Source of the DNA: a virus
DNA: 58,564 bases
Reading direction: 5' to 3' (one strand)
Virus record (IMG/VR): IMGVR_UViG_3300006162_000015
Span: 1 to 58,564 of that record
Below are positions 37,927 to 43,165 of this stretch, in pieces. Numbering within the stretch: position 1 is the stretch's first letter; the number at the start of each line of letters is the position of its first letter. The translations under genes were made by a program, and so were the position numbers. Below the pieces are notes generated by a model, which was given only the letters and a program-made list of their open reading frames with translations, ran no database searches and was not told the origin of the DNA.

Positions 37927-38174
37927 TTAACTTCTCCTGTTTCGTTTATACGTTTTTCAGCTATTTTAAAATAATTCTCATCTTTTTCGATACCAATAAA
38001 ATTTCTATTGAGGTTTTTAGCGGCTACGCCTGTGCTGCCTGAGCCCATTGTGAAGTCTAACACAGTTTCGCCTTCAAGTGTATATGTTTTAATTAAGTAT
38101 TCTAGTAAAGCGACGGGTTTTTGAGTAGGATGTTGAGACGGACGGTCTTTAGCAAAGCGTAATATATTTCGCGC
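37923..38174 (-). pseudogene. C-terminal remnant of a second DNA methyltransferase
   Basis: In this frame the DNA reads NILRFAKDRPSQHPTQKPVA, then VLDFTMGSGSTGVAAKN and FIGIEKDENYFKIAEKRI: the TQKP and AdoMet-binding motifs that end DpnA-like adenine methyltransferases. The frame is closed by TAA just upstream (38177-38175) and the catalytic N-terminal half is absent. It overlaps, in another frame, the end of the GIY-YIG gene, so the nuclease gene probably replaced the rest. Confidence 0.8.
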
Positions 38175-38554
38175 TTATTCCAAGCTACTTGTCCGATATG
38201 AGATTTTGATTGATTGGCTATTGCTTGAGGAGATGCTTTTTTACCTTTATTCCAAGGTTTTCTGCCTCTATGTTGGCTTACGTTGCCGCCTTTCAAAAGA
38301 TTATAGCCTTTAGGGTATAAACAATCGTGCGCTTCAATTAATTTAATTTCTAATTCGTCTAAAAAAGAAACGTCTAAGCATGATGCTATAGGTTCTATTA
38401 TAAAATTTTCTACGCCATAGCTTTTAAAAGCGCTGGTTAAAGGGCTTTTACGTTTACTGGCTTTATGTACTGCCCATCGATGTTGCAACTTAGCAATAGT
38501 TTGACCTATGTATATTTTACCATTTATTTTATTAGTAATTTTATAAATAACCAT
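38102..38554 (-). CDS. GIY-YIG homing endonuclease
   Basis: 150 residues with VIYKITNKINGKIYIGQT, FKSYGVENFIIEPI and LYPKGYNLLKGG, followed by a basic segment (RKPWNKGKKASPQAIANQ). The last 24 or so residues are read out of frame across the methyltransferase remnant, so its natural C-terminus may be lost. A promoter (38561-38589) ends so close to the ATG that the mRNA may be leaderless. Confidence 0.82.
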   Translation of the reverse strand: MVIYKITNKINGKIYIGQTIAKLQHRWAVHKASKRKSPLTSAFKSYGVENFIIEPIASCLDVSFLDELEIKLIEAHDCLYPKGYNLLKGGNVSQHRGRKPWNKGKKASPQAIANQSKSHIGQVAWNKREIYYALLKTVRLNILLKNPSLY

Positions 38555-38560
38555 CTATTT

Positions 38561-38589
38561 AATATAGCATAATGGTAATGCAGACGCAA
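38561..38589 (-). promoter_or_regulatory. Promoter of the GIY-YIG gene
   Basis: TTGCGT (38589-38584), 17 bases, TATATT (38566-38561), immediately after the capsid-operon terminator. Transcription would begin near the A of the ATG at 38554. Confidence 0.6.
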
Positions 38590-38590
38590 G

Positions 38591-38623
38591 AAATAAAAAG
38601 GCTAGGATTTTAGCCCTAGCCTT
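38591..38623 (-). terminator. Rho-independent terminator of the capsid operon
   Basis: Minus strand: AAGGCTAGG, eight-base loop, CCTAGCCTT (9-bp perfect stem, 38623-38598), followed by TTTATTTC. It lies directly after the major capsid gene and its third intron. Confidence 0.85.
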
Positions 38624-38671
38624 AGATTTGCTAATTAGTTAACTAGTTGATTTAACTAGATAATTGCACTA

Positions 38672-38927
38672 CACAGTTGAAACCGGGAGCGCTGCAAATT
38701 AAATTGCCGTAGTACCCGATGCGAATTTCTACATTTTGTTACTAACTTTCGTTAGGCCTACCCAGCACTTCAGCTTTCGGCTCTCGGATTTTCTTTCTAT
38801 ATTCCGAGTTCAGACTATCACATCCCTTTCGGGGTTTCTCGTTTAGTCGTTCAGGCTGCTTTCGCTTGCCCCTTGTTACCCTGTCGGGCCTCCAAGTCAA
38901 TTAGAGAAACTTTTAGATGCACTAGTG
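38672..38927 (-). ncRNA. Group I intron without ORF in the 3' end of the capsid gene
   Basis: About 256 bases. Core helices pair by eye: P3 GTTTCTC (38910-38904) with GAGAAAC (38840-38834), P4 CTTG/CAAG, P6 GC-GAAA-GC, P7 GACTA (38848-38844) with TAGTC (38817-38813), P8 CCC-CGAAA-GGG; beyond it hairpins CTCGGA/TCCGAG and CTAAC-GAAA-GTTAG. For P1, ATGCTT at the exon end pairs with GTGCAT, leaving the usual U-G pair at the splice site. The 3' end is less sure: G38672 (TAG of the exon then pairs with the P1 loop) or G38683/38684. Confidence 0.78.
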
Positions 38928-40007
38928 AAGCATATATCGCTTAGTCGATGCATCGGCGTTGCCTACTCGCAAGCCTTCGAGACCTTCCATGCCATAAGTG
39001 AGTATATGAGGTACTTTGCCTAGCGAACGGAGCTTCCAAGTAGACATAGTCAACAAATAAGCCGTTTGCGGAGGACAAGAGCGGTCTGCAAGGATCGTTA
39101 CGCGACCATAAGCAGATTGAAAGGTAATACCTTCAAATGCAACTTCGACTTCGTCGTGGTTGACTTGAACGTATTGTACTTTTGCGCCTAATGCGTTAAC
39201 CAAAGCTGCATATGAAGCAAAGTCCATAATGCAAAGATCTGGTTTGCCGCCTTCACGGTTAGTGAATGCAAGGGCGTTAGTAATACCTTCTTCAATCGTT
39301 TGCGATTGAGCGTTATAACGAAGACCTGCAAGACGGGTCGGATCTGCTGAGCGGTTAACGCCCCAGAAACTATCGGTTGATGCAGGAGTAGTAGTCGGAA
39401 TCCAAGCAGCTAAGCCTGAAAGTGCCAAGAAACTACCAGTGTTAGAAGCGCCAGTCGACGGTAGATCGCCTGATACTGTAAGGTATGCAGAGCCTGAACC
39501 GATAGCCCAGTTAGAGCTAAGAGTTGCAGCCGATGCTGTACCAGTAACAATACCGTTTGCGCGGTCTACTGCAGTTACCAATACGGTATCAGTTGAAGGA
39601 GCGCCGCCATCAGTAGCAGAAGCTACTAATAATTGGCCGACTTCAAATGCAACGATTTGGTTAGCGTTAGTAAGAGGCAATACTGTGCCGCCTACAGTCG
39701 TACCTGACTGAGTCGAGCTTGAGCTAGAAATACCACGAGTAGCAGTACCTGAACCAAATAGTTCAAAAGCAATGTTATTCGTAATGTTACGGAAACCGCC
39801 GTCCATTTGAAGTTTTGCAGCGTCAACAAACGCACCTGCGTTAGTCTTAGTCTGTTCCATCAAAAGGTTAGTGATAGTAACAAGTTGGTAATCTTGGATC
39901 ACATACACGAAAAACGATACCAATGACGTAGCCGTCTGTTGGTTTTGAGCGTTTGAAAACGTGTGTGCGCGACCTTGAGGGTTGCCGTATTCTAGCGGTA
40001 CTGGTAT
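38928..40007 (-). CDS. Major capsid protein, exon 3 (main exon)
   Basis: 360 codons, starting at ATACCAGTACCG and ending CTT. It contains EYGNPQGRAHTFSNAQ, GAFVDAAKLQMDGGFRN and ALGAKVQYVQVNHDEVE, which I recognise as the major capsid protein of podovirus-like phages. The exon has no proper start codon of its own; a TTG at 39923 would cut off conserved N-terminal sequence. Joined with 41699-41627 and 40676-40624 it gives a protein of about 402 residues. Unspliced at the 3' end it reads YMLH then stop; spliced it ends YML or with a few other residues. Confidence 0.88.
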
Positions 40008-40037
40008 CAGAGTGTTATCGTAAAGGCTTTTTATCCT

Positions 40038-40430
40038 TTACTTCTTAAACTTTTTTACATATGCTATCGTCATTTCAAGTCTTTCTATGTTTTCTTTAGC
40101 AAATCCCACCAATGGATTGCATAAAGTACATAGCAAGGCTCTTACCTGGCGTGTTGTATGATCGTGGTCTACATGTAATCGTCTTTTAAAATTAGACTTA
40201 TGTAATCCACAACATGCACAACATTCGTTTTGGGCTATAAGCAGGTCGTTATATTGTTCCGGCGTCATATCATAAAAACGCTTTAGACCTCTAACAAACT
40301 CTTTATATGATCTGCATTCTTTACAGTCGGGTTGAGTTGTTTCTTTGCCTCTAGACATGCGGCTAAATTCTTTTTTGTCTTTAGCTTTGTTGCAAGTCCT
40401 GCATATTCTTTGTTTAAGCTCAGCGTACAT
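40038..40430 (-). CDS. Intron-encoded endonuclease VII-like homing nuclease
   Basis: 130 residues from the ATG at 40430 (AAGGAG upstream). CRTC, CKEC, CCACCGLH, LHVDHDHTTRQVRALLCTLC: complete endonuclease VII pattern with all zinc cysteines, unlike the copy at base 1. It should cut intron-less capsid genes and so spread the intron. The ribosome site lies in a hairpin CAACTC-AAG-GAGTTG. Confidence 0.88.
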   Translation of the reverse strand: MYAELKQRICRTCNKAKDKKEFSRMSRGKETTQPDCKECRSYKEFVRGLKRFYDMTPEQYNDLLIAQNECCACCGLHKSNFKRRLHVDHDHTTRQVRALLCTLCNPLVGFAKENIERLEMTIAYVKKFKK

Positions 40431-40471
40431 TATCAACTCCTTGAGTTGTCGGTCACTCTTGGTACTATTTT

Positions 40472-40500
40472 ATTCTATCAAATCGTGTAGATAGTTTCAA
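40472..40500 (-). promoter_or_regulatory. Promoter inside intron 2
   Basis: TTGAAA (40500-40495), 17 bases, TAGAAT (40477-40472). The same -10 and spacing occur in intron 1 in front of the other endonuclease. It allows nuclease expression apart from the capsid transcript. Confidence 0.75.
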
Positions 40501-40623
40501 GTACTACGCGTTACACCGTCTCATAACTGTTACATTTTGAGATTGGCACGGTATTGGCATTTCAGCTTCCACCGTTTTTGACCAATTTTCAGCCATTAGT
40601 CGCCTAATGGCGGTACATTAGTT

Positions 40624-40676
40624 ATACTTACCAGCAAAGCCGTCCGGGCTTTCATCTTTAGGTACGAGGGCTAAGA
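40624..40676 (-). CDS. Major capsid protein, exon 2 (53-base micro-exon)
   Basis: Reads TC TTA GCC CTC GTA, i.e. (F)LALVPKDESPDGFAGKY. Joined to exon 1 it restores DDTK-FLALVPKDE, and joined to exon 3 it gives FAGKY-IPVPLEYG, both continuous with the conserved N-terminal arm of this capsid family. It is only 53 bases long and lies between two nuclease-bearing introns. Confidence 0.82.
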
Positions 40677-40683
40677 CAAATTG

Positions 40684-41373
40684 TTATCCTAAAGGCTTTT
40701 TATCCTCTAGTTCTAGCACTTCAAAGCGTCTTGCGAGATTATCTTCCGCCCATAAAGGTCGCATATTCGTATAATGACATACTTCTGCGAGCTGCTTTTT
40801 GTCCGATAGATCAAAGTTTTTAATCGGCTTTATGTGATCGATGTGCCAACCGTCGAGCTTCCAATTATCCCAAGTCATTCCCGGTTTAAATTGTTTTTCT
40901 ATATGAAGTTTAAATTCTTCAATAGAACAGCCTAGCAGTTTTAAAGCAGAACCAGATTTTGCGCCGCTTTTTATAGCAGATGTTATTCTAGCTCTAATAG
41001 TTTCTCGAAGTCTAAACTGGATGTCGGTTTTAAGCTTGTTCTTCTTCCACTTATAATGTTGAGCAGAATACTTTTTACCGTGCTTTACCCAGGTGCGTTT
41101 TCTTTGTGCCATCACAGCTTCCTTATTTTCATTTCTATAAGTTTTTCGCTGTTTATTTATTTTTTCTTTGTTGACTTCGCGATACTGTTTGTTCATCAAT
41201 CTCAAGCGTTCTTTGTTTTTCTCTCTATACGCTTTCTGATACTTTTTATGACACTCTTTGCAAACCATCCAGCCCTTAGCATTTGTAGCTAAATCTTTTG
41301 CCAGATTAGTTTCGCCTCCAAGTTGACATACAAAAACATCATTCGTGTTAGTTCGGCATATATTTTCACCCAT
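40684..41373 (-). CDS. Intron-encoded HNH homing endonuclease
   Basis: 229 residues from the ATG at 41373, with GGGAG upstream; a GTG 33 bases earlier lies at the expected transcription start and is unlikely. CQLGG and CKECHKKYQ at the N-terminus, a long basic Lys/Arg/Asn middle, and the HNH motif WHIDHIKPIKNFDLSDKKQL with HYTNMRPLW at the C-terminus. Ends within the conserved 3' hairpin of the intron. Confidence 0.88.
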   Translation of the reverse strand: MGENICRTNTNDVFVCQLGGETNLAKDLATNAKGWMVCKECHKKYQKAYREKNKERLRLMNKQYREVNKEKINKQRKTYRNENKEAVMAQRKRTWVKHGKKYSAQHYKWKKNKLKTDIQFRLRETIRARITSAIKSGAKSGSALKLLGCSIEEFKLHIEKQFKPGMTWDNWKLDGWHIDHIKPIKNFDLSDKKQLAEVCHYTNMRPLWAEDNLARRFEVLELEDKKPLG

Positions 41374-41412
41374 AATTTCTCCCTGGGTGCCTACCACTCG
41401 TGGCACTATTTT

Positions 41413-41441
41413 ATTCTAGCCCTTTTTGGCACTAGTGTCAA
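41413..41441 (-). promoter_or_regulatory. Promoter inside intron 1
   Basis: TTGACA (41441-41436), 17 bases, TAGAAT (41418-41413): an almost perfect sigma70 promoter, the best in the window, placed to express the HNH gene. Confidence 0.82.
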
Positions 41442-41626
41442 GTGCTATGCTCTACACTGATACGTCTTCTTTAGGAACGTATTTAGCACGGTATTAGCGT
41501 TTCAGCCTTCACCGTTTTTGGTTGGTTTTAAATCCCCGCTTATTCCAGGGATTTTCCTTGTAAACAAGGTCCTTCATATATTCTTTCATGATATCAAGGA
41601 CTTACAAGAAAAGACGACAAAGAGTT

Positions 41627-41699
41627 ATTTGGTATCGTCTGTGTATAGTTCTTTCAACGCAGCTATCTGGTTGGAACTATTGGCATAAACTGCTGCCAT
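41627..41699 (-). CDS. Major capsid protein, exon 1
   Basis: ATG at 41699 with AAAGGAAA upstream; 24 codons plus one base: MAAVYANSSNQIAAL ... YTDDTK, then T. Without splicing the frame stops at once (TAA). This is the true start of the capsid protein, directly downstream of the scaffold gene as expected. Confidence 0.85.
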
Positions 41700-41728
41700 T
41701 TTAATTTCCTTTGTTAATAATTAAATGT

Positions 41729-41749
41729 GTAATAACCCTATGTTATTAC
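41729..41749 (-). promoter_or_regulatory. Hairpin upstream of the capsid gene
   Basis: Perfect inverted repeat GTAATAAC / GTTATTAC with a 5-base loop between the scaffold stop and the capsid start. No T-run follows, so mRNA processing or stabilisation of the abundant capsid message is more likely than termination. Confidence 0.55.
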
Positions 41750-41754
41750 AACGG

Positions 41755-42807
41755 TTATTTGAGCTCTCCTCTCATGGCTAATATTGCACGTTCTCTGGCA
41801 CTCAACTTCCGAGTACTAGATACGGTATTAGTAAGAGTTTTTAAGGGGGCTGAGTCTTGCCCTTTAGTTGCTGCTGGTTGCGCTGGCTTCTGGGCTGCGG
41901 CCTGCGTCGGCGTTAGCTTGCGCTTAATTTTTTCAATTCTTGTTAATTTCATTGCTTCGTCAATAAGGTAGTTTTCTACTTCTTGGGCTGCTTCTTCTAC
42001 TGTAAGAAGAATTTGGTCTTTTTCCCAAGTCTTAGTAATAAGCTCTACTACGTCTTTTTCTGATCGCGTAGCTTTGATAGTCTCAAAGTTAGGGTCTGAG
42101 GCTACAAGGTTTTTAGTATCTAGTTCGATTTGACGTACGGCTTGGTTATAGGCGTCTTGCTGTTGCTTAGTCATGCGTTCGTTAGCTTCAGTAGTGCCTT
42201 TTTCAAGCTCTTCTATTTTAGCCTGTAATTTATCGATAGTTGCTTGAAGGCGAGGGTCGACTTTAGTAGGGTTAATAATCTGGTCGGCGATTTGGTCGTA
42301 AGACACCCCTGCTTCGGCTAATACCGTTAGCGGGTCGTTTTTAAGCTTGTCTAGCGAAATAAAGCCTTTTTGGTTAATCTCTGATTTTTGTTGTGCTTCT
42401 GCTTCGCGGGCTTTTATAGCCTCTTCACGTTGTCTAAACTTTGCTTCTTGTTCTTGGGCTTTTTGGCGAAGAAGTCGTTCTTGTCTGGCAAGCTTTGCCC
42501 ATTCTTGGCTTGCTTTAGTTTCAGGTTTTTTCTCTTCTGCTGGAGCTTCTGGCGCCGCCTCTACTTCTCCGCCTTCAGCCTGGGCTTCGACCTGAGGTTC
42601 TTGGCTAGGAGCTTTAACGGCTGATAGCTCTTCTGCACTAATATTGTTAGGGTTTGCTACTGCAGTTTCTTGGGCGTTACCTTGGGTAGGGGCAGCCTTA
42701 GAGCCTTGCAATATAGCTATTGCGCGGGCCTTGGCGTCTGTAGCTGCTGCAGGTGATGGTGCTTGAGGCTGAATAGCGACTGGCGAGCTTACTGGGATTA
42801 CTTTCAT
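41755..42807 (-). CDS. Capsid scaffolding protein
   Basis: 350 residues, highly charged, Ala/Glu/Gln/Lys-rich. A long coiled coil (about 95-240; KASQEWAKLARQERLLRQKA) and a basic C-terminal helix (SSTRKLSARERAILAMRGEL) which in scaffolds binds the capsid protein. Located between portal and capsid genes, the standard scaffold position. Acidic, Pro/Ala-rich N-terminal linker. Confidence 0.82.
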   Translation of the reverse strand: MKVIPVSSPVAIQPQAPSPAAATDAKARAIAILQGSKAAPTQGNAQETAVANPNNISAEELSAVKAPSQEPQVEAQAEGGEVEAAPEAPAEEKKPETKASQEWAKLARQERLLRQKAQEQEAKFRQREEAIKAREAEAQQKSEINQKGFISLDKLKNDPLTVLAEAGVSYDQIADQIINPTKVDPRLQATIDKLQAKIEELEKGTTEANERMTKQQQDAYNQAVRQIELDTKNLVASDPNFETIKATRSEKDVVELITKTWEKDQILLTVEEAAQEVENYLIDEAMKLTRIEKIKRKLTPTQAAAQKPAQPAATKGQDSAPLKTLTNTVSSTRKLSARERAILAMRGELK

Positions 42808-42817
42808 TTATGACTCC

Positions 42818-43165
42818 TTAGTTACTAAAATCTTTAAGTTTTTTATCGTTTTTAAATACTTTATAAGGCGAAACGGGAACTGATTTATTGCCAAAAAAAG
42901 CTACTTCATTGTTTTTTATGTTAAAATCAGGAAAAATACTTAGAGGGCCTACCGGAGTCGTAATTCTGCATCCTTCAAAATCTTGACCGTCTTCGTGACA
43001 AATAATAAATTGTACTTTAGAGCCTAGAGCAATGATTAATTCTGTATAATCTTGATAGCTCATAACCGCGCATTCTAAACTATTGTTTTTTTCTTTGGCG
43101 TCCACGCAGTGCTTTACAAGACACTCTTCTAGATAAACGTAGTTCGACATTCTTAGCTGTTTCAT
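42818..43165 (-). CDS. Capsid-domain paralogue, 115 aa
   Basis: Residues about 30-95 (CAVMSYQDYTELIIALGSKV, FEG, then VGPLSIFPD) line up with the C-terminal domain of the major capsid protein (CIMDFASYAALVNALGAKVQ, FEG, YGRVTILAD). It lacks the rest of the capsid fold. It may be a minor capsid or assembly factor derived by partial duplication. Lies between portal and scaffold genes. Confidence 0.6.
   Translation of the reverse strand: MKQLRMSNYVYLEECLVKHCVDAKEKNNSLECAVMSYQDYTELIIALGSKVQFIICHEDGQDFEGCRITTPVGPLSIFPDFNIKNNEVAFFGNKSVPVSPYKVFKNDKKLKDFSN

What the first reader, a model, noticed from the sequence alone, without database searches (positions are those of the whole stretch)
38669..41699. 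Major capsid gene split by three introns, with a 53-base micro-exon
Exons 41699-41627, 40676-40624 and 40007-38928 join to a continuous capsid protein (DDTK-FLALVPKDE, FAGKY-IPVPLEYG). Both internal junctions obey the group I rule: exon ends in U, intron ends in G. Introns 1 and 2 begin with AACT and share 3' ends; each carries a homing nuclease. A structural gene with three introns in a phage is rare, and an annotation pipeline would start the capsid at an internal TTG.
Basis: partly seen in the sequence, partly recalled or inferred. Interest (0 to 1): 0.85.

Follow-up and report, generated by a model that had tools for sequence, protein, structure and literature searches.

The report
Core-less mini-introns in phage capsid gene
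The capsid gene of this uncultured phage is cut into five pieces by three self-splicing (group I) introns plus a 47-base "mini-intron" that carries the splice-site guide but no catalytic core, so it apparently has to be cut out by a neighbouring intron's ribozyme; over thirty such mini-introns occur in relatives and I found no description of anything like them in nature.

Summary
Confirmed and extended. There are three complete group I introns (870, 616 and 216 nt). In the two large ones the core (P3-P8, P7.1, P7.2) is proven by covariation. A 40-nt micro-exon was missed. Between exon 1 and that micro-exon lies a 47-nt insert with an in-frame stop that cannot be translated through.

Relatives carry 31 comparable inserts (30-59 nt) at several sites. 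All 32 follow a U, end in G, and hold a guide that pairs with both exons (P1 with U.G at the junction, plus P10): 403/447 pair cells formed, maximum 281 in 1,000 shuffles. None has room for a catalytic core. Without them the reading frame is intact and under strong purifying selection. They occur only in genes with a complete group I intron (28 vs 0 loci), and in all 28 checked that intron lies downstream, usually within 120 nt.

Best reading: non-autonomous, core-less group I-type introns spliced by the neighbouring intron's ribozyme, a natural counterpart of the engineered "spliceozyme". Splicing itself is inferred from DNA; no RNA was available.

The parts
41634..41699 (-). exon 1 (66 nt, codons 1-22, MAAVYANSSNQIAALKELYTDD)
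   Evidence: alignment to intronless relatives
41587..41633 (-). core-less mini-intron, 47 nt, in-frame TAA as third codon; follows U, ends in G
   Evidence: absent from 74 intronless relatives; equivalent inserts at the same site in L013, L023, L044, L203, L238, L270, L273
41613..41618 (-). guide (P1 3' strand) GUCGUC pairing with exon end GACGAU, U.G at the splice site
   Evidence: hairpin is also the MFE of the strand
41619..41623 (-). P10 strand UCUUU pairing with start of next exon AAAGA
   Evidence: conserved in all intronless relatives
40677..41546 (-). complete group IA intron 1 (870 nt); P1 AAUCCCU/GGGGAUU
   Evidence: CM 165.6 bits
41350..41537 (-). intron 1 ribozyme core (P1 guide to P7)
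   Evidence: alignment A1
40684..41406 (-). HNH / endonuclease VII-like homing nuclease ORF in intron 1 (true start probably downstream of the core)
40624..40676 (-). exon 3 (53-nt micro-exon)
40008..40623 (-). complete group IA intron 2 (616 nt); P1 weak (4 bp)
   Evidence: CM 178.7 bits
40417..40616 (-). intron 2 ribozyme core
40038..40436 (-). endonuclease VII-family homing nuclease ORF in intron 2
   Evidence: PF02945 1e-19, phrog_2633
38948..40007 (-). exon 4 (1060 nt)
38732..38947 (-). complete compact group I intron 3 (216 nt, no ORF); P1 GAUGCAU/GUGCAUC; conserved R/S elements
38652..38731 (-). exon 5 with stop codon

Best explanation
The 41633-41587 insert is a core-less, non-autonomous group I-type intron. 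It keeps only what group I introns use to mark splice sites: a guide whose 3' half pairs with the 5' exon (P1, U.G at the cut), whose 5' half pairs with the 3' exon (P10), a spacer, and a terminal guanosine. It has no room for P3-P9. The P1 hairpin docks into the active site of a complete group I intron of the same transcript (here most likely intron 1, 40 nt downstream). Guanosine attacks after the U, the freed 5' exon, held next to the 3' exon by P10, attacks after the terminal G, and the exons are joined. Shown here: the gene structure, the necessity of removing the insert, the P1/P10/U-G architecture and its covariation, the lack of a core, and the link with a neighbouring complete intron. 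Inferred: that removal is at RNA level and that the neighbour's ribozyme does it.
For: Splice-aware alignment of 114 relatives plus the window, with no splice rule assumed: 74 without introns; insert lengths 30-59 nt, then nothing until 201 nt. All minis have exon U, insert-terminal G and U.G in P1. In 32 minis P1 positions 2-7 and P10 positions 1-5 pair in 88-100% of cases, mostly with all four Watson-Crick pair types; 403/447 cells paired vs mean 230, max 281 in 1000 shuffles. P1+P10 score 13.6 vs 5.4 for dinucleotide shuffles, 39/8400 reaching observed. Own exons P1 7.1 / P10 5.5 vs exons of other sites 1.7 / 1.2. Minis have stronger P10 than complete introns (5.5 vs 3.5, MWU p=1.7e-6). All 25 spliced mini-bearing ORFs checked are intact, dN/dS 0.03-0.08 where estimable. 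Mini and complete intron co-occur: 28 both, 0 mini alone, 11 complete alone, 74 neither (Fisher 6e-18); a complete intron lies downstream in 28/28, 23-119 nt away in 27/28. A pattern scan near cores of other contigs, made without protein alignment, gave 14 hits in 54 kb (12 distinct minis, four of them new) vs 7 in 450 kb of control. An engineered Tetrahymena ribozyme can remove introns in trans (PMC4094466).
Against: No RNA or protein data. The mini tails show no specific complementarity to the downstream intron, so the docking partner and order of events are not identified. The co-occurrence could partly reflect a shared homing hotspot, and loci are not phylogenetically independent, although minis are scattered over the tree. 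The window's P1 hairpin alone is not unusually stable (z -0.67).
Confidence: 0.75

Rival explanations
1. The short inserts are translational bypass elements (as in T4 gene 60 or yeast mitochondrial byps): ribosomes hop over them and nothing is spliced.
For: Similar length (30-59 nt), a hairpin at the 5' edge, an early in-frame stop in 25 of 30, and neighbouring homing nucleases, as in T4.
Against: Take-off and landing codons are identical in 0 of 32 cases. Inserts occur in phases 0, 1 and 2. The conserved tyrosine codon at site 31 is split T|AT by the insert and would be read as Asp after a hop. The stem uses exon bases upstream of the take-off codon, which the ribosome would cover. P10 pairing with the downstream exon, U.G at the junction and terminal G in all cases are group I splice-site features with no role in bypassing.
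Confidence: 0.07
2. The minis are removed at RNA level by group I chemistry, but the catalyst is a free ribozyme from elsewhere (another phage or host intron) or a protein-assisted system, not the neighbouring intron.
For: The minis carry their own guide, so any group I core could act on them; no tail complementarity to the neighbour was found.
Against: No mini in a gene without a complete intron; always a complete intron downstream, usually close; in the window the only class A cores are in the capsid gene.
Confidence: 0.12
3. The inserts are dead remnants of group I introns and the genes are broken, or the inserts are assembly errors.
For: Guide and 3' end resemble an intron with its middle deleted; one mini site (residue 52) is used by complete introns at exactly the same position.
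Against: They recur in more than 25 contigs from many samples, with guides that track synonymous exon changes; the rest of the gene is intact in 25 of 25 with dN/dS 0.03-0.08 where estimable; the capsid protein is essential.
Confidence: 0.05

Closest known systems
Group IA self-splicing introns of phages (T4 td/nrdB/nrdD, Twort orf142, SPO1, Bastille; review PMC3984707, PMC11878797)
   Same: The three complete introns are ordinary members; the minis use the same splice-site code (U before the 5' site, U.G in P1, P10, terminal G) and an early in-frame stop.
   Different: The minis lack the whole catalytic core and are 30-59 nt; known group I introns are about 200 nt or more.
Group I spliceozyme (engineered; PMC4094466)
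   Same: A group I ribozyme removes an intron that it is not part of, recognising both splice sites.
   Different: Engineered from Tetrahymena, with the guide in the ribozyme and a P9.2 helix formed in trans; here the guide is in the intron and no P9.2-like trans helix was found.
Natural trans-spliced (split) group I introns of mitochondria (e.g. PMC3873408)
   Same: Splicing parts lie on more than one stretch of RNA.
   Different: There the halves of one intron reassemble one core; here an intron without a core depends on another, complete intron.
Translational bypass elements (T4 gene 60, Magnusiomyces byps)
   Same: Size, 5' hairpin, early stop, homing nucleases nearby.
   Different: No matched take-off/landing codons; group I guide pairing with both exons.
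Group III introns of Euglena chloroplasts (from memory)
   Same: Shortened descendants of an autocatalytic intron class that probably rely on outside help.
   Different: Derived from group II introns; no group I equivalent known to me.
Capsid-gene introns of mycobacteriophage LittleE and lactococcal Tuc2009 (PMC3706429)
   Same: Group I-type intron in a major capsid gene; shown for LittleE by RT-PCR and N-terminal sequencing.
   Different: Single ordinary introns, no mini-intron.

Membership tests
group I intron (the three complete introns) | conserved core P3-P8 with P7 and guanosine-binding region | tested here: met
   A1, 25 sequences of the HEG-bearing class: 97.0% cells paired, 31/40 pairs with double changes, 0/500 shuffles as good; P7 covaries. 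Compact class (intron 3) shows R/S elements and a consistent fold, not counted formally.
group I intron (the three complete introns) | U.G in P1 at the 5' site, terminal G | tested here: met
   P1 of intron 2 is only 4 bp
group I intron (the three complete introns) | self-splicing in vitro | not testable with these tools
   no RNA
group I intron (the mini) | P1 with U.G, P10, terminal G | tested here: met
   32 of 32 have U, U.G and G; P1/P10 pairing
group I intron (the mini) | catalytic core P3-P9 within the intron | tested here: not met
   30-59 nt in all; the smallest complete introns in this family are 201 nt and model R1 is 178 positions long
translational bypass element | matched take-off and landing codons | tested here: not met
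   0 of 32 identical
translational bypass element | mRNA keeps the insert | not testable with these tools
   no RNA data
spliceozyme-like trans splicing | an intact ribozyme in the same transcript | tested here: met
   28/28 with a complete intron downstream
spliceozyme-like trans splicing | excision depends on that ribozyme | not testable with these tools
   needs core mutants in vitro
spliceozyme-like trans splicing | P9.2-like helix between substrate tail and ribozyme | tested here: not met
   tail complementarity to own neighbour equals that to unrelated introns (15.9 vs 15.5)

The most novel reading that the evidence does not exclude
Phages carry a natural class of non-autonomous, core-less group I-type introns (about 30-60 nt) that hold their own P1/P10 guide and are excised by the ribozyme of a neighbouring complete group I intron: one catalyst serving several introns, an RNA-only, forerunner-like version of the division of labour in the spliceosome.
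Probability: 0.7. Interest if true: 0.95.

Novelty: categorically new. Interest (0 to 1): 0.9.

Why it matters
Group I introns are thought to carry their own catalyst. An intron reduced to a guide hairpin that borrows another intron's ribozyme would be the group I counterpart of the step by which spliceosomal introns are believed to have arisen from group II introns, here in a simple, testable phage system. It would also explain genes that look broken by short frame-disrupting inserts, which annotation pipelines and Rfam miss (no hits), and would give very small removable insertions for RNA engineering. Because the minis sit where homing introns land, they may also protect the site from homing nucleases without changing the protein (speculation).

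Tried and rejected
Rfam at gathering threshold over the whole window and at E<=5 over 38300-42000: no group I hit, so an own model was built. Three loci gave spurious short DP gaps (L026 residue 6, L107, L116), dropped as contig-end or alignment artefacts: they lack the U..G/P1/P10 signature. A loose genome-wide P1/P10 scan is not specific (about 0.2 hits per kb in controls). A stringent scan upstream of class A cores in other contigs found minis only in this capsid family. Tail-to-core complementarity: nothing. Cultured phages: none encodes this capsid or portal; class A cores found in Bacillus phage PJN02 and others gave no mini in the region I read. No GTDB genome holds this capsid, so the host is unknown.

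Full report
Observation. The region 41699-38652 (minus strand) encodes a major capsid protein of the SU10 type. Searching viral contigs brought relatives of about 57-92% identity, most of them with the gene in one piece. The true C-terminus, ALEIRIGYYGNLICSAPGFNCVVQLSS, lies behind the third intron. The protein is 432 aa, and its nearest relative in the set is 94% identical.

The complete introns. Introns 1 and 2 share a core with 23 introns of relatives. In alignment A1 the group IA helices P3, P4, P5, P6, P7, P7.1, P7.2 and P8 form in 97.0% of cells; 31 of 40 pairs have changes on both sides; no shuffle of 500 comes near, and sliding the strands by one column drops pairing to 31-37%. P7 occurs as GCGUA/UACGC, GCAUA/UAUGC, GACUA/UAGUC and GAGUA/UACUC. 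A covariance model finds exactly these two cores in the window. Intron 3 belongs to a second, compact class of about 201-227 nt without ORF. Rfam missed all three.

The mini-intron. The 47 nt between exon 1 and exon 2 carry an in-frame TAA as third codon and shift the frame, so they must be removed or skipped. A splice-aware alignment that assumes no splice-site rule was run on 114 distinct relatives and the window. Insert lengths fall into 30-59 nt and 201 nt upwards, with nothing between. Apart from artefacts in three loci, all short inserts follow a U and end in G. Each contains a guide: directly 5' of a G that pairs with the last exon U lies a strand complementary to the start of the next exon, and from that G onwards a strand complementary to the end of the previous exon. 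That is the internal guide sequence of a group I intron (P1 and P10). In the window: GACGAU/GUCGUC and AAAGA/UCUUU.

Is it more than chance? Scores beat dinucleotide shuffles (13.6 vs 5.4; 39 of 8400 reach the observed value). Guides fit their own exons, not those of other sites. Laid out as 14 pair positions for 32 minis, 403 of 447 cells pair, against a maximum of 281 in 1000 permutations of guides among minis. The splice-site pair is U.G in 32 of 32, and most other positions show all four Watson-Crick types. Synonymous changes in the exon are followed by the intron: at site 23 the lysine codon AAA goes with UUU and AAG with CUU. A search for the same signature near cores of other contigs, made without the alignment, returned known minis and four new ones at a density far above control (14 hits in 54 kb, of which 12 are distinct minis, one is a duplicate and one lies inside an intron; 7 in 450 kb of control).

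Need for removal. Spliced reading frames of all 25 mini-bearing loci tested are intact, with dN/dS of 0.03 to 0.08 where it could be estimated. The elements are scattered over the capsid tree among intronless relatives. Exact empty sites exist in relatives with about 90-93% identical genes.

No core, but a neighbour. At 30-59 nt the minis cannot hold P3-P9. Minis occur in 28 of the aligned loci, all with a complete group I intron in the same gene; 11 loci have a complete intron alone, 74 neither. A complete intron follows downstream in 28 of 28 minis, at 23-119 nt of exon in 27 of them. No class A core was found anywhere in 686 kb around the intronless genes. Two loci (L036, L145) have only compact-class introns, so both classes may serve. 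The distance from guide to terminal G is never under 23 nt and mostly 23-28 nt, which suggests a steric limit. P10 is stronger than in complete introns, as expected if it must hold the 3' exon without P9.0 and the rest.

Mechanism. I infer that the P1 hairpin of the mini docks in the core of the neighbouring intron and that both transesterifications follow as usual. That a group I ribozyme can remove an intron it does not belong to is established for an engineered Tetrahymena ribozyme (PMC4094466); there the guide sits in the ribozyme. Cis or trans, and before or after excision of the neighbour, are open. I looked for extra pairing between mini tails and the neighbour and found none.

Rivals. 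Translational bypass fails on codon matching (0 of 32), on phase, and on the group I signature, but only RNA data can exclude it. Broken genes are unlikely given selection and recurrence. A catalyst from elsewhere is possible but does not explain the linkage.

Known or new. Phage genes with several group I introns, small exons and exon skipping are known (Twort, phiNIT1, SIOphi; PMC11878797), as are capsid introns (PMC3706429). I found no report of natural core-less group I introns in the literature library, which lacks most subscription papers, so the novelty claim has that limit. By membership the mini is not a group I intron, since the core test is failed; it works like one.

Limits. No transcript, no host, no cultured relative. 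The sites are not independent in a phylogenetic sense. The boundaries rest on protein homology plus the splice rule; in most cases two or fewer placements were equally good and one of them obeyed the rule. Genes other than the capsid gene were not tested by comparative alignment, so how far minis reach beyond this family is unknown.

Noticed in passing
L013, L026, L028, L030, L031, L032, L033, L035, L038, L043, L110, L111, L138, L139, L148: 3' ends of complete introns: These 15 complete introns have a further hairpin plus a short stretch ending in G after the usual P9 hairpin and GATAACA. All 15 lie in genes with a mini-intron, none in the 11 loci without (Fisher p=0.002). Some minis (L038, L043, L138) end in a similar hairpin plus GATAYTTG. 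Unexplained.
   Followed up: partly
mini-introns, all loci: In 25 of 30 minis an in-frame stop lies within the first three codons (about 19% expected); complete introns of the same genes have theirs later (median codon 6). The mini may act as a gate that halts ribosomes upstream of the large intron.
   Followed up: partly
window 42818-43165 (-): 115-aa ORF upstream of the capsid gene with weak similarity to a stretch of the capsid protein (27% identity, E 4.5e-4): possible partial duplication or decoration protein.
   Followed up: no
window 38102-38554 (-): Free-standing GIY-YIG homing endonuclease with NUMOD3 motif directly downstream of the capsid gene.
   Followed up: no
capsid codons 15-61 in relatives: Hotspot: complete introns at many different positions and minis at several sites within about 140 nt of coding sequence, probably the landing zone of several homing nucleases.
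   Followed up: partly
L254 2513-2810, L281 5557-5854: Two class A core matches only 270 bases apart on one strand of large phage contigs: tandem small introns, perhaps around another micro-exon.
   Followed up: no
L028 4001-4160, L035 4801-4937: Second, weak matches to the class A core model (32 and 38 bits) beside a diverged core in the same gene: possibly nested or duplicated introns.
   Followed up: no
window introns 1-3: Rfam 15 finds none of these group I introns (gathering threshold over the whole window, E<=5 over 38300-42000), although a model built from relatives scores the two large ones above 165 bits.
   Followed up: yes
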